Of a DNA stretch of 64,000 bases, positions 1 through 61,991 are shown in pieces (the first letter of the stretch is position 1; each line of letters begins with the position of its first letter). The DNA is from Desulfomicrobium macestii. Lineage in GTDB: Bacteria > Desulfobacterota > Desulfovibrionia > Desulfovibrionales > Desulfomicrobiaceae. The translations under genes were made by a program, and so were the position numbers. The DNA is taken from positions 117,834 to 181,833 of the forward strand of contig NZ_JADBGG010000003.1 in NCBI RefSeq assembly GCF_014873765.1, given 5' to 3'. Under the pieces are notes generated by a model, which had not been told where the DNA came from, searched no databases, and saw only the letters and a program-made list of their open reading frames with translations.

Positions 1-360
1 CCGCCGGTTTGGATGGATTTCGGGACGATGCGTCGTGGGTCGGTCACGCCGGTTTGGATGGGTTCCGGGGCGATGCACCGTAGGCCGGTCCCGCCGGCTT
101 GGATGGATTCCGGGGCGATGCGTCGTGGGTCGGTTCCGCCGGTTTGGATGGATTTCGGGACGATGCGTCGTGGGTCGGTCACGCCGGTTTGGATGGGTTC
201 CGGGGCGATGCACCGTAGGCCGGTCCCGCCGGTTTGGATGGATTTCGGGACGATGCGTCGTGGGGTCGGTCACGTCGGTTTGGATGGGTTCCGGGGTGAT
301 GCGTCGTGGGGTTCGTCTAACGGTATGGATGGTGATGTATTTCAGGGCGATGCACCGTAG
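1..360. repeat. 45-bp tandem repeat array (minisatellite), cut by the left window edge
   Basis: The motif cgccggtttggatgg recurs at 2, 47, 92 (one change), 137, 182 and 227 with an exact 45-bp step. A seventh copy starts at 273 after a one-base insertion near 263, and a degenerate eighth runs to 360. Two unit variants, one with atgcgtcgtgggtcgg and one with atgcaccgtaggccgg, tend to alternate. Two reading frames stay open through the array because 45 is a multiple of 3, but the products are low-complexity Trp/Arg/Met repeats and the one-base insertion breaks the pattern. I read it as non-coding. The array continues left of the window, so it could also be the 3' end of a repeat-encoding gene whose start is not visible. 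Confidence 0.9.
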
Positions 361-5056: not shown

Positions 5057-5120
5057 GATTTATCGCTCTTCTCAAAAACATGACCCTGATGTTCGGACCA
5101 GATTTGGAATAATTGAAAGG

Positions 5121-5735
5121 TTAGCCAACGGTCGTCAAATATTCCTTGGCTTCACGAATGATCTGCTCTGCGGTTTCGCTTCTTGGCTGGCAGCTTTCAG
5201 CCCATGAGCGCCCTGGATGGAGTACGTCCCAGCGGGGTCTAAAACCAGCATGCCGCCCTTTTCCCGGGTCATGGTTTCCAAAGCCATCAATAAGCGTGTT
5301 CCATATCGGACTGAATTTGGCGATGAGTAGTGATTCTCCAAGAGGAATCCAGATGTCGTCCACGATCAAGTATCGACAGTGAAAATCTGAAATATCGAGG
5401 TTTTTGGATTCTTCGATGCTTCGCGCATGTTGCGCGAGCCTACTGAAAAGGGCTTTTCCTGGAACTGCGTCAAGATTTCCCCCCTTGCGAGTTCCTTTTG
5501 GGACGGCTTTGCCGACGTAGATAGGATGAGTGAATCTGCCGCCTCGATTTTGCGCCGCCAGCGGGGCATAGGCCGGGAAGTCGCCAGTATAATACAATGC
5601 GTAGATTCCTGCCCCTTCAAAAGGTTTTAATGCGCTCAAGGATTCGGCAGGGCGCTGGAGCATGGCTTGTCCAACACTTTCGCCAAGATGCCGCTTGTCC
5701 AAGGGATTGAAGGGGATAATGTTGGCTCCCGTCAT
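5121..5735 (-). CDS. GIY-YIG type II restriction endonuclease, Eco29kI family
   Basis: The 204-residue protein matches the compact GIY-YIG restriction enzymes typified by R.Eco29kI, which cuts CCGCGG. All active-site positions known for that enzyme have counterparts: GIYALYY (Tyr45/Tyr49), PIYVGKA (Tyr73), LFSRLAQH (Arg99 and His103, four apart) and GESLLIAKFSPIWN (Glu134 and Asn146, twelve apart). The enzyme should therefore be active. Its ATG overlaps the methyltransferase stop by 4 nt (ATGA), which fits translational coupling so that the methylase is made first; this is why I start at 5735 and not at the in-frame ATG at 5870. Base composition looks A/T-richer than the flanking genes, consistent with horizontal gain. 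The recognition sequence is inferred from family membership and is not proven. Confidence 0.88.
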   Translation of the reverse strand: MTGANIIPFNPLDKRHLGESVGQAMLQRPAESLSALKPFEGAGIYALYYTGDFPAYAPLAAQNRGGRFTHPIYVGKAVPKGTRKGGNLDAVPGKALFSRLAQHARSIEESKNLDISDFHCRYLIVDDIWIPLGESLLIAKFSPIWNTLIDGFGNHDPGKGRHAGFRPRWDVLHPGRSWAESCQPRSETAEQIIREAKEYLTTVG

Positions 5736-6943
5736 GCGACATGCCACCGTCTTAATTGTGTGATTTGTCGTGTACTTGCGGCGATTAGGCACTCCGCCAC
5801 GGAGGCAGCCACCCGGCGACCCAGGGCGACCGGCACGGCATTGCCGAGTTGCCGCATTGCTTCCGTCCAAGAGCCATGAAGCACATATCCATCGGGAAAG
5901 GTCTGGAGACGCGCGGACTCCCTCACCGAGAAGTATCGGACTTGCCCGCTATCCATGACCATCATGTTTTCACCGCCAGGCACTCCATGATCCCCTGCCT
6001 TGAGGGTTTTGGCAGGCAGGTCAAGCGGGCTGCCTGTATGCCCTGGGTACGAACGGGCGCCATTTTGGAAAGCGTGGTTCATGAAGTTGCCGTCGGAATG
6101 GCGAGGATCCGAGACCTCCGCCAAGGCATCTCGAACTGTCCGCCAGGGTTTTTCTTTTGGCGGGGACATAAGATAACCTAGTTTACGAACCTTGGCTTCC
6201 AAAGCAGCCGTGATCTTCGGGCGATTTTTTTTTGGGATTTCATGGCGCTCCCAGTACTCGCCCGAGCCCCACTGCGTGTGGAGCAGAGCATCGAGGCTGT
6301 GCGAGGCGGAAGGAAAGGACCATTCAACCCCGAGATCGGAACGGAAGCCGACAATGAAAACTCGTTCTCGTTTCTGCGGAACACCGTGATCCGCAGCGTT
6401 TACCAATGTGGGCACGACATTGTAGGTGAGCCCGGATCCATGTAACGCTCCAGAGGTTTTTTCGGATTGGAGGCGTTTAAGATGATGTGACCAGCATTCA
6501 TCATGCTGGCGTGTGACTTCAGGGAATTCCAGTTGAAGCAATATGTACTGATAGTAATTCGCGAAGCTGGAACGAGTCAGCCCTTTCACGTTTTCTATGA
6601 TGAAGGATTTAGGTTTCAGAGAACGCACCACCTCGACGGTTGCCGGAAACATATCGCGTTTATCGCCGTAAGCCTTGTGCTTGCCGCCCATGGAAAAAGG
6701 CTGGCAAGGGGGGCCACCCGCAAGCAAATCGATGTCCTGCGGGATTGATGACCAGTCAAATGCACGGACATCGCCTTCCCAAATCGGCCAGTCGCGGACC
6801 AGAGGGAAGGCGCGTTTTTGATTTTCCCGGATAGTATCGCAAGCCCATTTATCCCATTCCACCACGGCAAGGGATTCAAAACCAGCGAGGGTGACCCCCA
6901 TGGCTAACCCCCCGGCTCCGGCGAAAAGTTCCACTGATTTCAT
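5732..6943 (-). CDS. DNA (cytosine-5) methyltransferase of the restriction-modification system
   Basis: This 403-residue protein carries the ordered C5-methyltransferase motifs. Motif I is ELFAGAGGLAMG at the N-terminus, motif IV is GGPPCQPFSMGG with catalytic Cys80, motif VI is ENVKGL and motif VIII is QKRERVFIVGF. Motif IX lies near RYFSVRESARLQTFPDGY and motif X is QLGNAVPVALG at the C-terminus. It protects host DNA from the adjacent endonuclease. The start overlaps the vsr stop by 4 nt and its stop overlaps the endonuclease start by 4 nt, giving a three-gene translationally coupled unit. The target-recognition domain between motifs VIII and IX should define the site, presumably that of the Eco29kI-type partner. 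No controller (C) protein gene is visible. Confidence 0.95.
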   Translation of the reverse strand: MKSVELFAGAGGLAMGVTLAGFESLAVVEWDKWACDTIRENQKRAFPLVRDWPIWEGDVRAFDWSSIPQDIDLLAGGPPCQPFSMGGKHKAYGDKRDMFPATVEVVRSLKPKSFIIENVKGLTRSSFANYYQYILLQLEFPEVTRQHDECWSHHLKRLQSEKTSGALHGSGLTYNVVPTLVNAADHGVPQKRERVFIVGFRSDLGVEWSFPSASHSLDALLHTQWGSGEYWERHEIPKKNRPKITAALEAKVRKLGYLMSPPKEKPWRTVRDALAEVSDPRHSDGNFMNHAFQNGARSYPGHTGSPLDLPAKTLKAGDHGVPGGENMMVMDSGQVRYFSVRESARLQTFPDGYVLHGSWTEAMRQLGNAVPVALGRRVAASVAECLIAASTRQITQLRRWHVA

Positions 6944-7368
6944 GATTGCCCTCTCGTGGGTTCGTCCAAAAATTTTCTGATGGTCATGACCAGCCGATCT
7001 GCGTCATCCAGTTCGCATTCCCAAATCACCAAGACGCGCCAGCCCAGTTCGTACAAGCGTTGTTGCTGCAGAGCATCTCGATTTTTGTTAGAATCCAATT
7101 TTTTCTTCCAAAAATCCAGCTTGGATTTTGGGAGTCTGGCGAGCTTGCAGCCTTCGTGGCGATGCCAGAAGCAACCATGCATGAAGATGACGGCGCGCCG
7201 AGATGGAAACACAAGGTCTGGAGTTCCGGGAAGTTCCTTGACGTGAAGCCGGTACCGATATCCAAGTTTGTGCACCAAGCGGCGAAGTCGTATTTCCGGA
7301 GCAGAATCCTTGCCGCGAATTCGAGACATTCGTTCACTCCGTTCCTGAGAGGAGAGCGAGTCTGTCAT
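6940..7368 (-). CDS. vsr: Very short patch repair endonuclease Vsr
   Basis: The 142-residue protein is a typical Vsr nuclease. It nicks next to T:G mismatches that arise when 5-methylcytosine deaminates, so it limits mutation caused by the neighbouring C5 methylase. Family segments seen are MSRIRGKDSAPEIRLRR, GTPDLVFPSRRAVIFMHGCF, the HGCFWHRHEGC metal/zinc region, the FWxxKxxxNxxRD helix and a C-terminal VLVIWECEL strand. It is the first gene of the vsr-methylase-endonuclease operon and its start lies only 16 bp beyond the RND pump stop codon at 7385. The whole module therefore sits directly downstream of the efflux operon and could be reached by its read-through. Confidence 0.95.
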   Translation of the reverse strand: MTDSLSSQERSERMSRIRGKDSAPEIRLRRLVHKLGYRYRLHVKELPGTPDLVFPSRRAVIFMHGCFWHRHEGCKLARLPKSKLDFWKKKLDSNKNRDALQQQRLYELGWRVLVIWECELDDADRLVMTIRKFLDEPTRGQS

Positions 7369-7384
7369 GGAATTGCCCTGGTTG

Positions 7385-10300
7385 TCAGGATTTCTCTCGC
7401 TGATCCAAATAGTACATCACCGGCACCACCATCCGGGAAAACAGCGTCGCCGCTACTTCTCCGGCCAGAAGCGATATGGCCAGGCCCTGGAAGATGGGGT
7501 CGAAGAGGATGACGAAGGCTCCGGCGACAACGGACAGGGCGGTCAGCACCATGGGCCTGAAGCGTACTGCTCCGGCTTCGACCACGGCGTTTTCCAGGCT
7601 TTCGCCCTGGTCGCGACGCATGGTGATGAAGTCCACCAGGATGATGGAGTTGCGGACCACGATGCCTGCCCCGGCGATGAAGCCGATCATGGACGTGGCC
7701 GTGAAGAAGGAGCCTGAGATGGCGTGGGCCGGGATGATGCCGATGAGCGAAAGCGGGATGGGGATCATGATGGCCAGCGGCGTCGTGTAGGACCCGAACC
7801 AGCCCACCACCAGGATGGCGATGAGCACCAGCACCACGGCGAAGGCCACGCCCATGTCACTAAAGACCTCGTAGGTGATCTGCCATTCTCCGTCCCATTT
7901 CATGGCAATCTCGTGGGTCGTGTCCGCGCCGCGGGTGTAGAGGCGGGTCAGGGGTCGCGTGTCTCCGGCCTGCCATGCGCCCCGGCCGGTCGCGGCCAGT
8001 TCGTCCAGGGCCTCGTCCACGCGGGCCATGCCGTAGATTGGGCTCTCTTCCTCTCCCGCCATGTCGGCCGTCACGTAGATCACGGGCAGCATGTTCTTGT
8101 GATAGATGTAGCCCGGCGTGATTCCCTGCGTCAGGCTCGCGATCTGGTCGAGGGAAACCATCCGGCCGTTTTCTCCGCGCACGGGCAGGGTTGCCAGATC
8201 CTTTGGATGCGAGCGCTCGGAGACGGGCAGGCGAAGCACGATGGGGACGTCCTCCCGGGCGCGCGGATCATGCAGGATGCCGACCTGCATGCCCCCCACG
8301 GAGGCGGCCAGGACCTGTCTGGCCCGATCCGGACTGATGCCGTTTTGCAGGGCCTTCTCCGGACTGAGGCGCACCCTCGTCTCAGGACGCGGATCGTTCA
8401 CGAACCAGTCCACATCCACAACGCTCGGCGTCCGGGCAAAGATGTCCTTGACCTGTCCGGCCACGGCCAGTCTTGAATCGTGGGTCGGGCCATAGATTTC
8501 GGCCACCAGGGTTTGCAGCACCGGCGGACCGGGGGGCACTTCCACCACCTTGATTCTGGCCCCGAGTTCCCTGGCCAGGGGCGCGATGCTTGTCCGCACC
8601 CGACCCGCGATCTCGTGGCTTGAGGCGTCGCGATCGCCCCGGCCGACCAGATTGACCTGAATCTGGGCCACGTTCGGCCCCTGGCGCAGGTAATAATGGC
8701 GCACCAGCCCGTTGAAGGAAAAGGGCGCGGCCGTGCCCACATAGAGCTGCACGTCGGTCACCTCCGGCTGCGCGATTATGGAGCGCGACAGCGTTTCGGC
8801 GGCGGCCATGGTGGTCTCAAGGCCCGTTCCGTCGGGCATGTCGATGACAATCTCGAATTCGCTCTTGTTGTCGAAGGGCAGCATCTTCACCAGCACGGCC
8901 TTGAGCGGAAAGAGGCTGACGGCCAGAAGGAGCAGGGCGACCATCCCTGCCAGAAAGAGGGCGCGGAAGCGGGGCCGTTCGATGAGGTGGCGCATGAGCC
9001 AGATGTAGCCGCGCGTGAAGATGTCGTCGTGGGATTCGGGCTCGTGACTGTCCGAGGGCTTAAGGACCCGTTTGGCCAGCCAGGGGGTGATGACGAAGGC
9101 CACGGCCATGGACAGGAGCATGGCCATGCTCGCCCCCACCGGCATGGGGCGCATGTATGGTCCCATCAGCCCGCCCACGAAGGCCATGGGCATGATGGCC
9201 GCGATGACCGTGAAGGTTGCCAGGACCAGGGGCGCGCGCACCTCGCTGACGGCTTCGATGATGACCTGGGAAAAGGGCCGCCCCGCCGAACCGGGCAGGC
9301 GCACGTGGCGCACGATGTTCTCCACGTCCACGATGGGGTCGTCCACCAGGATGCCGATGCAGAAGATGAGCGCGAACAGGGTCACCCGGTTCAGGGTGTA
9401 GCCCAGCAGCCAGTAGGTGGCCAGGGTCACGGCCAGGGTCACGGGCACGGCCACCATGACCACCGCGCTGGCCCGGCTGCCCAGGAAAAAGGCCACGATG
9501 CCGCCCACGGACAGGGCCGCGATGGCCAGATGGAAGAGCAGTTCGTTGGACTTGTGTTTGGCCGTCTCGCCGTAGTCGCGCACGATGACGGTCTGCATGT
9601 CCGCCGGAATGACCGTTCCGCGCAGGCTCTCGATGGTCGCCAGCGCCTTTTGGCAAAGCTCGGTGGCGTTGATGCCCGGGCGCTTGGCCACGGTCAGGGT
9701 GATGGCGGGCTGGAGTCGGCCGGTCCCGGCGGACAGGCCCTTGGACTCGGCCCGCGCTCCCGGGGCAAAGAGGACATAATCCTCGGGTTCGGCCCAGCCG
9801 TCGCGGATATCCGCCACGTTGCCGAGTGTCACGGGGTGGCCGCCCTGCACGGCGATGACGGTTCCGGCCACGTCGGCGGCGGTGCGCATGGCATTGTCGA
9901 GGCGGACCTGACGGCTGGCTCCGGCCGAGGTCATGAGCCCGCTCTGGTCGGCCTGGTTCTGGCTCGCGATGGCCTCGGCCACATCCACGCTGTCCAGGTT
10001 CAGGGCCCGCAGCCGCGCCGGGTTCACCTCCACGGTCAGGGCCCGCTTGCGTCCGCCGATGAGGCTCACTTCCGAGACCCCGTTCATGGCCCGCAGGCTC
10101 TCGGCCACCTCCGAAGCGACCTGGCGCAGGGTCCGGCTGTCATGGGTGTCGGAGGTCAGGGCCACGGCCAGAACCGGCACATCGTCGATGGAGCGCGGTT
10201 TCAGGATGGGCTGCGAGCATCCGGGCGGAATCCAGTCCAGGTGCTGGTAGAGCTTGCCGTAGGTCTTGATCAGGCTCCTCTCCACATCCTCTCCGACCAG

Positions 10301-55952: not shown

Positions 55953-57374
55953 ATGCGTACAAAGATAGTGGCCACTCTGGGCCCGGCTTCCATGGATCAG
56001 AACGTCATGAAGGAAATGGTCCTGCTTGGCGTGCGGGTCTTCCGTCTCAATTTTTCCCATGCCGACGCGGAGTATTTCGGGCCGGTCATTCAGAAGATCA
56101 GGCAGGTCGAGAAGGAGACCGGCATCCCGCTTACAGTCATGGGAGACCTGTGCGGTCCCAAGATCCGCATCGGCGAGGTCAAGGGCTCGCCCCTGCAGAT
56201 CCGCAAAGGGGCCTATGTATGCCTTGGCGGGCCATCCATGGCGGCGACGACCGAAAGCGACATCTTCATAAGCCTCGATGTGCCGGAGCTTCTGGAAGGC
56301 CTGGAGGCGGACATGCCCGTGTCCCTGTCCGACGGCATGCTGCAGTTCAAGGTCGTGAAGGTCATCGAGCGCGACCGACTGGTCCTGATGGAGGCCCTGA
56401 ACGGCGGCATCCTGACCTCCAACAAGGGCATCGCCTTTCCCGGCAAGACGCTCAAGGTGGCGGCCATGACTGACAAGGACCGCCGCGATCTGCACCAGGG
56501 ACTCGATATCGGCATCGACGCCGTGGCCCTGTCCTTCGTGCAGAGTAAGGAGGACATCGAGGACATCAAGGCCGAGATCGCGCGGCACGGGACCTGGATT
56601 CCCGTGGTGGCCAAGGTCGAGCGCAAGAACGCCGTGGACAAGCTCGACTCCATCCTGGAAGTGGCCGACGCCATCATGGTCGCGCGCGGCGACCTGGGCC
56701 TCGAATGCAGCCCGGCCGAGCTGCCCATCATCCAGAAAAAGATCCTGCGCTCCTGCCGGCATGCCCAGAAGCCGGCCATCGTCGCGACCCAGATGCTCTT
56801 GTCCATGGTCAAGAATCCCATCCCCACGCGCGCTGAATCGACGGACGTCTCCAACGCCATGATCGACGGCGCGGACTGCGTCATGCTCTCCGAAGAGACG
56901 GCCATCGGCAGCTATCCCGTCGATGCCGTGCGCTTCATCAACGAGATCGCGCAGTATTCCGAGCCATATTACCTGGAGCGCCTGGGCGGCCCCTACATGC
57001 CCAAGGCCGAAAAGAATCCGCCCAAGTTCCTGGCCTACTCCGCCTGCCTCATGGCCGACAACGCCGACAGCGTGGCCCTGGTCTGCCATTCGACCACGGG
57101 CGCCACGGCCCGGTACATCAGCTCCCGCCGTCCGGCGCAACCCATCTACGCCATGACCACGGACGCGCGCATCATGCGCTGGATGAACTTCTTCTGGGCC
57201 ATCACCCCGGTGGAAAGCCCGCTCGAGCCCCGCAGTCACCAGAAGAGAGCGGAAAAGTTCGTGCAGGAGTACGCGGGTTTCAGGCCCGGCGAGAACGTGA
57301 TCATCGCCAGCGGCCAGGCCACCCCGGGCATGGGTACGGTCATGACCAACGAGATCAAGGTGTATTATAAGTAG
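55953..57374 (+). CDS. pyk: Pyruvate kinase
   Basis: The 473-residue enzyme makes ATP and pyruvate from phosphoenolpyruvate. It shows TKIVATLGPAS, RLNFSHADAEYF, DLCGPKIRIGEV, LSFVQSKEDIEDIKAE, VAKVERKNAVDKLDSILE and VARGDLGLECSP, then the ESTDVSNAMIDGADCVMLSEETA nucleotide/metal block (shown here only in part) and a C-terminal effector domain. A second ATG at 55947 is in frame; GGGG suits 55953. A strong terminator follows. Confidence 0.96.
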   Translation: MRTKIVATLGPASMDQNVMKEMVLLGVRVFRLNFSHADAEYFGPVIQKIRQVEKETGIPLTVMGDLCGPKIRIGEVKGSPLQIRKGAYVCLGGPSMAATTESDIFISLDVPELLEGLEADMPVSLSDGMLQFKVVKVIERDRLVLMEALNGGILTSNKGIAFPGKTLKVAAMTDKDRRDLHQGLDIGIDAVALSFVQSKEDIEDIKAEIARHGTWIPVVAKVERKNAVDKLDSILEVADAIMVARGDLGLECSPAELPIIQKKILRSCRHAQKPAIVATQMLLSMVKNPIPTRAESTDVSNAMIDGADCVMLSEETAIGSYPVDAVRFINEIAQYSEPYYLERLGGPYMPKAEKNPPKFLAYSACLMADNADSVALVCHSTTGATARYISSRRPAQPIYAMTTDARIMRWMNFFWAITPVESPLEPRSHQKRAEKFVQEYAGFRPGENVIIASGQATPGMGTVMTNEIKVYYK

Positions 57375-57441
57375 CTTGGAGCAGTTAGAGAGCGCTCCGC
57401 CATCAAACGACCATGTTTTTGACGTAAACTTGTCTGCGAGG

Positions 57442-57485
57442 TATGCCGCATGACCGCGTGACGGTCGTGCGGCATATTTTTTTTT
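57442..57485 (+). terminator. Rho-independent terminator of pyk
   Basis: A 15-bp stem (57442-57456 with 57462-57476, one G-T pair) is followed by T9. It lies about 70 bp after the pyk stop and 30 bp before the glycosyltransferase start. Confidence 0.9.
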
Positions 57486-57516
57486 GCATCGCTTGGTTTT
57501 GAAAAAGGAGGCTTCT

Positions 57517-58887
57517 GTGAGAATCGCGATCTGCAGCTATAGCCAGGGTGTTGGCAATGGCATAGCCAGGATGGATGAGTATCTTTTGCAATATTTAGAC
57601 AGAGGCACTTTTTCTGTTTTGTACGTCTTTATCGATACCAAGAAGGATGGTTTGTTCGAAAGAGTCTCCCCAGGGAGAATACATCTTTCCCTTGATATCG
57701 CGCTGGAAAATCTTCCCGACATTTTTAGACATGTCGATATCATACAATTCAATGGGAGCTATGATCCTGTTATCTGTTCCGCCGCAGAGATAGCCGGAAA
57801 AAAAGTGGTGATTGAGGTTATGCACAATATTGAGCCTGGGATGATGCATCGAAATGTGTGCCATACGGTTTGTGTATCCCGAACGGTTCAGAGGGCTCAG
57901 CTGAATGCCAGCAAAACCAGCGTTATATATAACGGTGTAGACACGCAGAAATTCGTTCCTGCGCGGATAAGACGCTATCCGGAAAAGATTGTTGTGATGC
58001 AGCCAGCCCGGCGTGACAAGGTGATGCACGCGAATCTGGAAAATCTCGCTCCTCGCATCTTCGCGCATAATGGCAATCTCGAGTTTTGGATGGTCGGCCC
58101 GGGCCAGGACACGGCCTACGGCGAAAATTTTTCCGCCATGAAATATCTCGGGGTGCGAGCGGACATGGAAGAACTTTACGCCAATGCCGATTTCATGCTT
58201 CTGCTGTCCAAAGGAGACTCTTTTGGTCTGGTTGCGGCCGAGGCGATGGCGTGCGGGTGCCTGCCTATAGTGTCTCACGATGGTGGAGCCGCCGAGTTCG
58301 TTGAGCATCTGAAAGATGGATATGTGGTTGACTGCTCGCGGCCGGAAGGAATTGTTCCTGCCATTCTGGAGGCCCTGAACGCTCGTGGCGAAGACGAAGT
58401 CATGCGTCTGGCGGCGCGCAGAAAAGCGCTGGACGTGCTCGATATTAAAAATTCAGTGTGGCACTATGAGCAACTGTACGCAGAGATAGTTTCAAAGTCC
58501 TGTGCTCACGAGTCTTGTGGTGCATGCTTGTCGAAGGAGCTTCCAATCATGGAGTCACGTATGATGACTTTGGCCATGTATCATCGGCAAGGACGCAGCT
58601 TGTGTGAGTTGGCTCCGTTTTTTTCAAAACTTGTCCTCACGGAGCAGGGATTTGATCCAGGCAGGCTTAGGCATCCGTTTTGGGGAAACGTATTTGAAAT
58701 CGTTTCTTCCTTGGCGCACGAAATGGTTCTTAGTGGGCACAAGGATGTCGCGTTTAGATTCTACGACAAACTGTTGTCGAGTAGAATTATCTTTCCATTT
58801 TATTTGCAAAATTGGCTGGAGAGCGGTCCTGCTTTAGATGCACGTACGAGAATTCGGCATGCTTTGGATGTGCTTGGCTGCGGTTGA
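57517..58887 (+). CDS. Glycosyltransferase family 4 (GT-B) with C-terminal extension
   Basis: This 456-residue protein is a GT-B glycosyltransferase. The N-terminal half contains RIAICSYSQGVGNGIARMDE and NIEPGMMHRNVCHTVCVS, and the C-terminal half MQPARRDKVMHANLENL, YANADFMLLLSKGDSFGLVA and the EAMACGCLPIVS nucleotide-sugar site (E-x7-E type). Residues beyond about 340 add a Cys-containing linker (CAHESCGACLSK) and a helical tail. GTG 57517 has GGAGG six bases upstream. The gene is visibly A/T-richer than its neighbours and is flanked by terminators, consistent with transfer. Acceptor unknown. Confidence 0.85.
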   Translation: MRIAICSYSQGVGNGIARMDEYLLQYLDRGTFSVLYVFIDTKKDGLFERVSPGRIHLSLDIALENLPDIFRHVDIIQFNGSYDPVICSAAEIAGKKVVIEVMHNIEPGMMHRNVCHTVCVSRTVQRAQLNASKTSVIYNGVDTQKFVPARIRRYPEKIVVMQPARRDKVMHANLENLAPRIFAHNGNLEFWMVGPGQDTAYGENFSAMKYLGVRADMEELYANADFMLLLSKGDSFGLVAAEAMACGCLPIVSHDGGAAEFVEHLKDGYVVDCSRPEGIVPAILEALNARGEDEVMRLAARRKALDVLDIKNSVWHYEQLYAEIVSKSCAHESCGACLSKELPIMESRMMTLAMYHRQGRSLCELAPFFSKLVLTEQGFDPGRLRHPFWGNVFEIVSSLAHEMVLSGHKDVAFRFYDKLLSSRIIFPFYLQNWLESGPALDARTRIRHALDVLGCG

Positions 58888-58951
58888 AAAGCATCGTGTT
58901 TGCAGGCGTCGCACAATAGGGTTTCAAGGTGAAAAATCGCAAAAGGTAAGG

Positions 58952-58986
58952 AAAAGGGGCGGTCCAGCAGGCCGCCCCTTTTTTGG
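58952..58986. terminator. Terminator between the convergent glycosyltransferase and purL genes
   Basis: aaaaggggcgg (58952-58962) pairs with ccgcccctttt (58972-58982), followed by more T residues. The A run on the left lets it serve the minus strand too. Confidence 0.88.
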
Positions 58987-59009
58987 TAACATGTCGGGAT
59001 GAAGTAGCT

Positions 59010-61991
59010 TTAAAAATCCAGCGTCTTTTTCCAGGCTGTGGCCAGGTCTTCTACCGAAGCGTTGGCCAGGATTGCGCTTCCAGCGCGCAGGGTCAGCTTT
59101 TCGTCGGATGTGGTCCGGCCGATGGCGGCCATGAAGTCATCGGCGAAGAGGGCTTCGAAGGCGCCGCGCCTGTCTTCCGGCACCGTGACCACGAAGCGGC
59201 TGGCGGATTCGCTGTAGAGGCGCTGTTCGGGCAGCGGGCAATCAAGGGCCGGGATCTTGTCCACGTCGATGTCCGCACCGATCCGTCCGGCCAGAGCCAT
59301 TTCGGCCACAGCCACGGCCAGTCCGCCGTCGGAGACGTCGTGGGCCGCGCTGACAAGGCCGGTGGTGATGGCTTCGTGCATGCGCTCGTAGCGGATGCGC
59401 GCGGAAACCGCGTCGACCTGCGGCACCGATCCGCACACACCCAGGGCGTCGGCATATTCCGAGCCACCCAGTTCGTTTTTGGTCAGGCCGAGCACGTAGA
59501 CGTTTTCGTCCGGACGCTTGAAGTCGGAGGTCATGGTCCTGTTGCAGTCGTTAATCACGCCCATGACCGAGAAGAGGACCGTGGGCGGGATGGAGATCTT
59601 GGTTCCGCCGCCGGTGTAGTCGTTCTTCATGGAGTCCTTGCCGGAAATGCAGGGCACTCCGTAGGCGAGGCAGAAATGGGCCAGGGCCTGATTGGCGCGG
59701 ACCAGCTGGGCCAGTTTGTATTCGCCGTCCGGGGTCTTTTCGGACTGGACCGGGTCGCACCAGCAGAAGTTGTCCACGCCGGCCATGTGGCGGATGTCGC
59801 CGCCGGTGGCCACGGCGTTGCGCACGGCTTCATCGATGGCGCCCGCCATCATCCAGTACGTATCGAGATCGCTCAGTTTCGGGCAGATGCCGTTGGCCAC
59901 GACCAGGGCCTTGTCGCTGCCGAGCTGGGGACGGATCACGGCGGCGTCGGCCGGACCGTCGTTCCGGGCTCCAATGAGGGGCTTGATCACGCTTCCACCC
60001 TGTACCTCGTGGTCGTACTGGCGGATGACATACTCGCGGGAGCAGATGTTCAGGCGGCCGAGCATGGTTTGCAGAAAGTCCTGATGGTCCGTTACCTTGG
60101 GATGCGGCGTTTCGCAGCCACAGCAGACCTGCGGTTGCCGCCAGGCGGCGCGGAGCTTCATCTGCGGGCAGCCGTCATGCAGGAACTGCATGTCGAGGTC
60201 GGTCACGATCCTGTCATTGTAGCGCACATGCAGGTAGCCCGAGTCCGTGAAGCAGCCCAGATCCGAGGCCTCGACGTTCATTTCTTCCGCCAACTCCATG
60301 AAGGCCTGAAGTTTGGACGGGGGCACGGCCAAGGTCATGCGCTCCTGGGCTTCGGAGACCAGGATCTCCCAGGGGCGCAGGCCGTCGTACTTGAGCGGGG
60401 CCTTGGCCAGGTCCATGTCGCAGCCGCCGCAGTCCTGGGCCATTTCGCCGACCGAGGAGCTCAGTCCTCCGGCGCCGTTGTCGGTGATGGCGTTGTAGAG
60501 GCCCAGATCGCGGGCGCGCATCAAAAAGTCGTACATGCGGCGCTGGGTGATGGGGTCGCCGATCTGGACGGCCGTGGCCGGAGAGCCCTCGTGCAGCTCT
60601 TCGGACGAGAAGGTCGCGCCGTGGATGCCGTCCTTGCCGATGCGGCCGCCGGTCATGATGATGCGATCGCCGGGCAGGGCCTTCTTTTCGTAGCTGGGAT
60701 GTCCGGCCACGGTGGCGGGCATGGTGCCGATGGTGCCGCAGAATACCAGCGGCTTGCCCAGGAAGCGTTCGTGAAAGACGATGGCTCCGTTGACCGTGGG
60801 GATGCCGGACTTGTTGCCGCCGTGTTCGACGCCTTCCCGCACGCCCTCGAAAACGCGGCGCGGGTGCAGCAGGCGGGGCGGCAGTTCGTCGTCGTGAAAG
60901 GGCGAGGCGAAGCAGAACACGTTGGTGTTGCAGAGCAGGTTCGCGCCCATGCCGGTGCCCATGGGGTCACGGTTCACGCCGACGATGCCGGTAAGGGCTC
61001 CGCCGTATGGGTCCAGGGCAGAGGGGCTGTTGTGGGTTTCGACCTTGATGCAGACGTTTATGTCTTCGCTGAAGCGGATCACGCCGGCATTGTCCTTGAA
61101 CACGGACAGGCAGAAGTCGTCCTTGCCCATGCGCTGGCGCAACTGCTTGGTGCTGCCCTGGATGTAGGTCTTGTAGAGGCTGTTGATTTCAGCCTTGGTG
61201 CCGTTTTCAAGATTCTCGTAGCTGATGCGGGAGCTGAAGATCTTGTGCTTGCAGTGCTCGGACCAGGTCTGCGCCAGGCATTCGAGTTCCGCGTCCGTGG
61301 GTGCGGCGGGGAGATTTTTGGCCTTGCGGTGGGCGACGACCTCGGGGCTCGCATAGTAGTCGCGGATGCAGCGCATTTCTTCAAGATTCAGGGCCAGGAT
61401 GTTTTCGCGGCTGAGCTTCATGAGCGCGGCGTCATCCATGCTGCTCAAATCCACGATATCGACGGTGCTCGAGGCTTCGCCCGTGACCGCCGCAGTGCGC
61501 GCCGGAAAGCCGGGGCTTGTGGTCCAGGTGTCCCTGTCCACGATCTGGAAGCGCTGGATCAGCTCGTTGGCCAGAAGGTCCTTGGCGATGTGCTCCACCT
61601 GGGCCGGGCTCAGGTCGCCGCTGATCAGGTACTGGGTGGATGTGTAGACCGCGATGTCCGCGTTGCGTTCCCCAAGCACTGTGCGCAGGGTTTCGCGAGC
61701 GGTGCGGCCCTCGTTGTCGGTCACGCCGGGGCGGAAGCCGACCTCGATGATCCAGTCGAAATCCGTGGCCGCCGGAGCGGTCTGGGCCGTATGCAGGACC
61801 GGGTCATGCAGGGCTCCGGCCTCGATGGCCTGATCCACCTGGGCCTGGCTCAGTCCGTCGACGGTGTAGATCCGGATTATCCGGACCTGATCCACGGTCA
61901 GGCCGAGCTCGTTTTTGATCTTGTGGGCGGTCTTGTTGCCCTGGGTATCGGTAACTGCCTTGCGCAGAGCCACTTCGACTCGGATCGGCAT
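59010..61991 (-). CDS. purL: Phosphoribosylformylglycinamidine synthase, PurL with N-terminal PurS-like repeats
   Basis: The 993-residue protein catalyses FGAR amidation to FGAM. The N-terminus holds two PurS-like copies (about 1-70, RVEVALRKAVTDTQGNKTA; about 78-150, WIIEVGFRPGVTDNEGRTA). A linker (about 165-230) leads to the PurL core with QTWSEHCKHKIFSSRI, VETHNSPSALDPYGGALTGI, GVEHGGNKSGIPTVNG, TDNGAGGLSSSVGE, ISGKDSMKND and VSAAHDVSDGGLAVAVAEMA. The C-terminal glutaminase of the large-type enzyme is missing, so a separate PurQ must supply ammonia. AGGAG precedes the ATG. It follows the GGDEF gene by 21 bp. Confidence 0.93.
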   Translation of the reverse strand: MPIRVEVALRKAVTDTQGNKTAHKIKNELGLTVDQVRIIRIYTVDGLSQAQVDQAIEAGALHDPVLHTAQTAPAATDFDWIIEVGFRPGVTDNEGRTARETLRTVLGERNADIAVYTSTQYLISGDLSPAQVEHIAKDLLANELIQRFQIVDRDTWTTSPGFPARTAAVTGEASSTVDIVDLSSMDDAALMKLSRENILALNLEEMRCIRDYYASPEVVAHRKAKNLPAAPTDAELECLAQTWSEHCKHKIFSSRISYENLENGTKAEINSLYKTYIQGSTKQLRQRMGKDDFCLSVFKDNAGVIRFSEDINVCIKVETHNSPSALDPYGGALTGIVGVNRDPMGTGMGANLLCNTNVFCFASPFHDDELPPRLLHPRRVFEGVREGVEHGGNKSGIPTVNGAIVFHERFLGKPLVFCGTIGTMPATVAGHPSYEKKALPGDRIIMTGGRIGKDGIHGATFSSEELHEGSPATAVQIGDPITQRRMYDFLMRARDLGLYNAITDNGAGGLSSSVGEMAQDCGGCDMDLAKAPLKYDGLRPWEILVSEAQERMTLAVPPSKLQAFMELAEEMNVEASDLGCFTDSGYLHVRYNDRIVTDLDMQFLHDGCPQMKLRAAWRQPQVCCGCETPHPKVTDHQDFLQTMLGRLNICSREYVIRQYDHEVQGGSVIKPLIGARNDGPADAAVIRPQLGSDKALVVANGICPKLSDLDTYWMMAGAIDEAVRNAVATGGDIRHMAGVDNFCWCDPVQSEKTPDGEYKLAQLVRANQALAHFCLAYGVPCISGKDSMKNDYTGGGTKISIPPTVLFSVMGVINDCNRTMTSDFKRPDENVYVLGLTKNELGGSEYADALGVCGSVPQVDAVSARIRYERMHEAITTGLVSAAHDVSDGGLAVAVAEMALAGRIGADIDVDKIPALDCPLPEQRLYSESASRFVVTVPEDRRGAFEALFADDFMAAIGRTTSDEKLTLRAGSAILANASVEDLATAWKKTLDF

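What the first reader, a model, noticed from the sequence alone, without database searches (positions are those of the whole stretch)
5121..7368. Eco29kI-type GIY-YIG restriction system with its own Vsr nuclease
All six active-site positions of R.Eco29kI have equivalents with identical spacing. The three genes are coupled by ATGA overlaps in the order repair-methylase-endonuclease, so protection is made before cutting. Vsr with a non-Dcm C5 methylase would need to recognise T:G in a different sequence context. The island begins 16 bp after the efflux pump stop, an unusually tight integration.
Basis: partly seen in the sequence, partly recalled or inferred. Interest (0 to 1): 0.5.

Follow-up and report, generated by a model that had tools for sequence, protein, structure and literature searches.

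The report
Eco29kI-type restriction cassette with mismatch-repair gene
Three overlapping genes that probably came from another microbe are predicted to mark the cell's own DNA, cut unmarked foreign DNA at one six-letter word, and repair the mutations that the mark causes; systems of this sort are already known and widespread.

Summary
The finding is real and essentially ordinary. On the minus strand lie vsr (7368-6940), a C5-cytosine methylase (6943-5732) and an Eco29kI-family GIY-YIG endonuclease (5735-5121), coupled by two ATGA overlaps. The methylase is 49% identical to M.Eco29kI. It is 40% identical to each of two reported CCGCGG cutters that are 36% alike, so CCGCGG is the likely target. 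The island is foreign: low GC, absent from 15 of 15 other genomes of the genus, with intact empty sites in two. Its edge probably lies inside the pump's last codons. CCGCGG is no scarcer here than in relatives without the island. V-M-R is the layout of 54 of the 80 nearest loci; V genes in CCGCGG systems, and a Vsr that cleaves T:G in CTGCGG, are in print. One lead: cassette Vsr proteins share an Arg-Arg-Lys signature (54 of 58; 0 of 31 others) between the wedge residues, a candidate specificity feature, though a gonococcal Vsr that probably matches the published CTGCGG enzyme lacks it.

The parts
6940..7368 (-). [quoted passage not shown] AGGG 7 nt before its ATG
   Evidence: NCBIfam TIGR00632 E=4.4e-43; E. 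coli Vsr 1cw0 E=1.1e-29; conserved Vsr positions kept; upstream sequence
5732..6943 (-). C5-cytosine DNA methyltransferase, 403 aa, M.Eco29kI type; start overlaps the vsr stop (ATGA); GAGAGGG 5 nt before its ATG
   Evidence: Pfam PF00145 E=4.3e-60; PADLOC MTase_II E=3.7e-127; 189 of 386 positions identical to M.Eco29kI; upstream sequence
5121..5735 (-). GIY-YIG restriction endonuclease, Eco29kI family, 204 aa; start overlaps the methylase stop (ATGA); no strong Shine-Dalgarno sequence seen by eye
   Evidence: Pfam PF09517 E=3.7e-70; R.Eco29kI structures 3mx4, 3nic, 3mx1 E about 1e-41; six active-site residues
5057..7397 (.). approximate inserted island: cassette, 64 bp after the endonuclease gene, 16 bp before vsr and probably the pump's last codons; right edge at the neighbour's stop codon, left edge between about 7388 and 7398
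   Evidence: in G006 and G015 the pump stop and the neighbour's stop are 93 and 25 bp apart with no cassette between; GC of 5057-7384 is 53.3% against 60.4% for the window
5081..5100 (-). weak terminator-like hairpin and T run after the endonuclease gene
   Evidence: 4 such sites in the region against 2.9 expected in shuffles, so weak

Best explanation
A horizontally acquired type II restriction-modification cassette of the Eco29kI (CCGCGG) kind with a built-in repair enzyme. M methylates a cytosine in host CCGCGG (by analogy with M.Eco29kI the second C). R, a GIY-YIG nuclease, dimerises on the site (as reported for R.Eco29kI) and cuts it when unmethylated. V nicks at the T:G mismatch left when that 5mC deaminates (CTGCGG paired with CCGCGG) and starts short-patch repair, so methylation does not erode its own sites. 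The genes are read as one unit, perhaps partly from the pump operon just upstream, with R translated by coupling to M. Shown: gene content, order, overlaps, absence in relatives, conservation of the trio. Inferred: target, methylated base, V specificity, transcription, activity.
For: Family and structure matches. All six active-site residues of R.Eco29kI. M 49% identical to M.Eco29kI, with 46 of 101 aligned positions identical in the stretch 205-311 that I took as the target-recognition region. R is 39.9% identical to R.Eco29kI and 40.5% to R.DraR1, both reported to cut CCGCGG, while these two are 35.7% identical to each other; all three share DGFGNHxPGxGR...WDxxHPGRxWA (targets from PMC3039593, PMC1952068 and PMC10855626). 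V, M and R distances agree across 57 cassettes (r 0.69, 0.62, 0.76; 0 of 999 permutations as high). V-M-R in 54 of the 80 nearest loci. A gonococcal Vsr, V.NgoAXIV, is reported to cleave T:G in CTGCGG/CCGCGG (PMC6116569 passage), so this reaction is possible for a Vsr. Empty sites and absence in the genus.
Against: No cassette-specific avoidance of CCGCGG: obs/exp 0.44 in 400 kb of this genome, 0.49 and 0.44 in 400 kb each of two relatives without PF09517, so the genome gives no independent support for the target. CTGCGG, the expected deamination product, differs little (0.815 against 0.959 and 0.868). The base mark in CCGCGG systems is not uniform in print: DraR1 is m4C, and the gonococcal NgoAIII mark was detected as a 4mC signal by PacBio (PMC6789123 passages), although the methylase beside the family's R in a gonococcal record is of the C5 type. 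No sigma-70-like promoter was found just upstream of vsr. Whether any protein is made or active is unknown.
Confidence: 0.85

Rival explanations
1. Same cassette, but with a drifted target: M and R recognise a word other than CCGCGG and V serves that word.
For: Identity to the tested enzymes is only 40-49%; genome word counts do not single out CCGCGG for this genome.
Against: The window R is closer to each of two CCGCGG enzymes than they are to each other and keeps their shared C-terminal block; the presumed recognition region of M is nearly as conserved as the rest (46/101 against 101/193 and 43/88).
Confidence: 0.12
2. A silent or decaying island: sequences intact but not expressed or inactive, kept by chance after recent arrival.
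For: Absent from the rest of the genus, no promoter found at vsr, no CCGCGG avoidance beyond relatives.
Against: All three frames open, overlaps and ribosome-binding sites present, active-site residues kept; placed so that read-through from the pump is possible.
Confidence: 0.15
3. V is not matched to M but is a general T:G nicking enzyme serving several 5mC contexts, including that of the second C5 methylase of this genome.
For: Both gonococcal Vsr enzymes are reported as multispecific (PMC6116569); the two Vsr proteins found in a gonococcal record lack the cassette signature, though the paper reports that one gonococcal Vsr cleaves the CTGCGG context; this genome has a second C5 methylase with a vsr beside it.
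Against: 56 of 58 cassette V proteins fall in one set with one outsider (SH-aLRT 92) and 54 of 58 share R70/R78/K81 against 0 of 31 others, which hints at matching; common descent alone could give this.
Confidence: 0.4

Closest known systems
Eco29kI restriction-modification system (plasmid pECO29)
   Same: R in the same Pfam family with the same six active-site residues; C5 methylase 49% identical; stop/start overlap between the genes
   Different: pECO29 has R before M and only these two annotated genes; the window has V-M-R; R is 40% identical with other loop lengths
V-M-R Eco29kI-like cassettes of other bacteria, a Paraburkholderia plasmid and Burkholderia phage Milagro
   Same: same three genes in the same order: 54 of the 80 nearest loci, plus the plasmid and phage copies
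   Different: sequence divergence (nearest R 75-77%, nearest V 74% identical) and insertion site
E. coli Dcm/Vsr very short patch repair
   Same: V is a clear Vsr with equivalents of E. coli D51, H64, F67, W68, H69, W86 (whose printed E. coli numbers are one lower; roles of these residues recalled)
   Different: partner methylase is not Dcm; the loop between the wedge residues differs
V.NgoAXIV of Neisseria gonorrhoeae
   Same: a Vsr reported to cleave T:G in CTGCGG/CCGCGG, the mismatch expected here (PMC6116569 passage)
   Different: reported as multispecific, not part of a V-M-R Eco29kI cassette as far as seen; neither Vsr of a gonococcal record has the RRK signature (GHK and GAK; which one is NgoAXIV is my guess)
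DraR1 system of Deinococcus radiodurans
   Same: R of the same family, reported target CCGCGG
   Different: its methylase makes N4-methylcytosine and lies ten ORFs away (PMC10855626)

Membership tests
Eco29kI-family type II endonuclease (GIY-YIG) | match to PF09517 above the curated cut-off over the full model | tested here: met
   235.4 bits against a cut-off of 30.8, positions 1-164 of 164
Eco29kI-family type II endonuclease (GIY-YIG) | residues equivalent to Y49, Y76, R104, H108, E142, N154 | tested here: met
   Y45, Y73, R99, H103, E134, N146; residues named in PMC1952068
   28/26/4/31/12 against 27/28/4/34/12
CCGCGG-specific RM system | cleaves and methylates CCGCGG | not testable with these tools
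   bracketing by two reported CCGCGG enzymes supports it; word avoidance is uninformative
C5-cytosine methylase of a type II RM system | DNA_methylase match above cut-off and adjacency to R | tested here: met
   204.3 bits against a cut-off of 22; ATGA overlap
Vsr mismatch endonuclease | TIGR00632 above cut-off, with the conserved catalytic and wedge residues | tested here: met
   146.4 bits against a cut-off of 97.85; D51, H64, F67, W68, H69, W87 present
Vsr mismatch endonuclease | nicks at T:G in the context of the partner methylase | not testable with these tools
   only sequence-signature evidence

The most novel reading that the evidence does not exclude
Vsr proteins of CCGCGG cassettes form their own specificity class: a loop between the two DNA-wedge aromatics (R70, R78, K81 in the window protein) tunes them to T:G in CTGCGG, where other Vsr proteins read CTWGG or many contexts; exchanging this loop would retarget mismatch repair. 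(Probability lowered from 0.30 to 0.20: a gonococcal Vsr, probably the one reported to act on CTGCGG, lacks the triad, so the triad could at most confer preference, not ability.)
Probability: 0.2. Interest if true: 0.4.

Novelty: new member of a known kind. Interest (0 to 1): 0.2.

Why it matters
By itself it is one more mobile type II RM system. The useful part is the wide V-M-R family: dozens of Vsr proteins paired with one predicted methylase specificity make a natural test set for what decides which T:G mismatches a Vsr repairs, and the patchy presence of V among close relatives (12 changes on the R tree) would let one ask what V is worth to an RM system.

Tried and rejected
Genome-wide avoidance of CCGCGG as evidence of target: rejected, relatives without the cassette show the same deficit. 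CTGCGG depletion as a trace of V action: slightly lower than in both relatives, too small to use. Target-site duplication or flanking repeats at the island's edges: none convincing. The crystal-structure paper of R.Eco29kI for base contacts: not held. Orphan or homing nuclease reading: dropped, full-length RE_Eco29kI match and adjacent methylase. No structure was predicted and no fold search run.

Clustering of diagnostic V positions: 5 of 9 flagged positions fall between the wedge residues (simulated p 0.002); a scan over any 13-residue stretch gives p 0.017. At three stricter thresholds the first figure is 0.007-0.019 and the second 0.07-0.17. Descent from one ancestor may explain all of it. 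Against a required triad: the two loci with V after R (L062 GHK, L073 GES), and both Vsr proteins of a gonococcal record (GHK, GAK).

Rows dropped or relabelled: V proteins under 100 aa in view were left out (L025, which matches only in part, and L039, at a contig edge). L002 (partial) and L132 (the window's own gene) were removed. L226 was moved by me from 'other' to cassette context because its methylase is 64% identical and an Eco29kI R lies beside it in the same genome. 'Other' V loci were seen with about 1.5 kb flanks, and the loci returned were the higher-scoring part of its matches, so a more distant R could be missed. The 80 loci are the best of 242 and lean to close relatives; L069's methylase matches in three pieces and may be broken.

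Full report
The observation. On the minus strand of the window three open frames follow one another: 7368-6940 (142 aa), 6943-5732 (403 aa) and 5735-5121 (204 aa), each pair overlapping by ATGA. The first is a Vsr endonuclease (TIGR00632 E=4.4e-43; E. coli Vsr 1cw0 E=1.1e-29). The second is a C5-cytosine methylase (PF00145 E=4.3e-60; PADLOC MTase_II E=3.7e-127). The third is an Eco29kI-family endonuclease (PF09517 E=3.7e-70 over the full model; R.Eco29kI crystal chains E about 1e-41).

The six active-site residues named for R.Eco29kI (Y49, Y76, R104, H108, E142, N154; PMC1952068, abstract and passages) are all present as Y45, Y73, R99, H103, E134, N146. Spacing is the same only for R-H and E-N; the other three intervals are 28, 26 and 31 against 27, 28 and 34.

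Origin. PF09517 is found in 0 of the 15 other genomes of the genus and in 3 of the 61 genomes of that search, the window's own included; in 11 of 395 genomes of the phylum, again with the window's own. In the same-genus genomes G006 and G015 the pump gene and the convergent methyltransferase gene sit beside each other with 93 and 25 bp between their stop codons and no cassette. In G013 and G009 only a pump remnant is left at this place (111 and 22 bp between stops). In all four the pump carries 8-11 residues beyond aligned position 1074-1076; the window's pump stops at residue 1077, ending REKS. The simplest reading is that the island's left edge lies in the pump's last codons and the island supplies the stop. 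Pump tails also differ in four other relatives whose pump lies elsewhere, so the edge is not fixed to the base. The right edge is at the neighbour's stop codon. The stretch 5057-7384 is 53.3% GC against 60.4% for the window; of 617 sliding windows of that length, 2 are as low, both at 56.7-59.1 kb and not in the island. No convincing flanking repeat was found, and I recognised no recombinase among the ORFs, which I read by eye only.

Expression. vsr and the methylase have Shine-Dalgarno-like sequences (AGGG and GAGAGGG before their ATGs), the endonuclease does not obviously. With the ATGA overlap this suggests that R is made by coupling to M, and less of it (inference). No sigma-70-like site was found on the minus strand upstream of vsr (scan to 7700); one lies inside the methylase gene (6446-6419), upstream of R, and one at 5138-5109; 3 sites in all against 1.6 expected in shuffles, so none counts for much. 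vsr starts 16 bp after the pump stop in the same direction, so read-through from the pump operon is plausible (inference).

Target. R.Eco29kI cuts CCGC^GG and M.Eco29kI methylates the second cytosine (PMC3039593, passages). R.DraR1, another family member, is reported to cut CCGCGG (PMC10855626, passages and section 5). The window R is 39.9% identical to the first and 40.5% to the second, which are 35.7% identical to each other. The methylase is 49% identical to M.Eco29kI (189 of 386), with 46 of 101 positions identical in the stretch taken as its recognition region (its limits set by me from recalled motif positions). CCGCGG is therefore the likely word. Word counts do not help: CCGCGG is under-represented to the same degree in this genome (122 seen, 276 expected in 400 kb) and in two relatives without the cassette (132/268 and 111/250), as expected for a newcomer.

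How common. A scan of one genome for each of 84,980 species confirmed 242 relatives and kept the best 80. Of these 80, 54 have V-M-R, 2 have M-R-V, 14 have M-R with room upstream but no V found, 6 are cut by a contig edge, and in 4 no similar M was found. The bases at the M stop read ATGA in 37 of the 54 (counted by hand). The same trio is on a Paraburkholderia plasmid and in Burkholderia phage Milagro; a Halomonas plasmid has M-R without V. pECO29 has R-M with no other annotated gene, and a gonococcal record has R-M with no V in the 8.5 kb fetched. On a quick tree of 84 R proteins (36 of 81 inner branches open), presence of V needs 12 changes (57 with, 15 without, 12 unlabelled; shuffled mean 13.8, 55 of 500 shuffles as low; at least 7 forced by well-supported branches), so V is gained or lost often. 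Within cassettes that have it, V, M and R distances agree (V-M r=0.69, V-R 0.62, M-R 0.76; n=57; 0 of 999 permutations as high).

The Vsr partner. 58 cassette V proteins (the window's, 52 of the 54 V-M-R loci, the two M-R-V loci, the plasmid and phage copies, and G060's) were compared with 31 V proteins from elsewhere. On a quick tree of 89 rows with few columns, 56 of the 58 fall in one set of 57 (SH-aLRT 92, below the 95 mark). Nine positions separate the groups at the first threshold; five lie between the aromatic residues equivalent to W68 and W86 of E. coli Vsr (their role as a DNA wedge is recalled). R70, R78 and K81 together occur in 54 of 58 and 0 of 31. The two cassettes with V after R lack the triad, and so do both Vsr proteins of a gonococcal record. 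That matters because V.NgoAXIV is reported to cleave T:G in CTGCGG/CCGCGG, among nine substrates (PMC6116569, passages). I take the closer of the two gonococcal proteins (42% identical, GHK) to be V.NgoAXIV because the paper puts that enzyme in the E. coli group; this is a guess. The triad is thus not needed for action at CTGCGG and could at most give preference. Shared ancestry may explain it entirely.

Known or new. PMC10855626 (section 5 read) reports 310 putative m5C systems for CCGCGG from REBASE and says that some contain V elements. PMC6116569 shows a Vsr acting on the very mismatch expected here. PMC3091744 (abstract and passages) describes a Vsr in a three-gene EcoRII-type module of a phage. 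PMC6789123 (passages) reports the NgoAIII CCGCGG mark as a 4mC signal, a reminder that the base is not certain from homology. The combination in the window is a new member of a known kind. I searched for papers holding both Eco29kI and Vsr (3 papers) and both Vsr and CCGCGG (3 papers); in the passages that I read of these five different papers I saw no study of a Vsr from an Eco29kI-type V-M-R cassette. Only openly licensed papers are held.

Verdict. A V-M-R Eco29kI-type cassette, probably acquired after the genus diverged and probably functional; ordinary as a system, with one modest lead on Vsr specificity.

Noticed in passing
G000 contig C9:19561-21385 (L129, L135, L136): The same genome holds a second C5 methylase (minus strand) and a second vsr (plus strand) side by side; this V is 52% identical to the window's and lacks the RRK triad (RYA).
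   Followed up: partly
L110 (G013 C1 about 7450-7760), L114 (G009): In two relatives the pump beside this site is reduced to about its last 30 residues; in G013 the remnant follows a stretch that by eye resembles the membrane-fusion gene, as if a deletion fused the two.
   Followed up: partly
window 56701-59128: The only other stretch of the window as low in GC as the island; a possible second foreign segment, not examined.
   Followed up: no
window 1-310: Tandem array of a 45-bp unit (6.8 copies, higher-order period 135) at the window's start, open in more than one frame.
   Followed up: no
G000, G006, G015 samples (L146-L205): CTCGAG is the scarcest of 64 six-base palindromes in all three 400-kb samples (obs/exp 0.26, 0.41, 0.19), lower than CCGCGG.
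   Followed up: no
L062, L073: In two Oscillospiraceae loci a distant Vsr lies after the Eco29kI-type endonuclease instead of before the methylase, suggesting a separate recruitment.
   Followed up: partly
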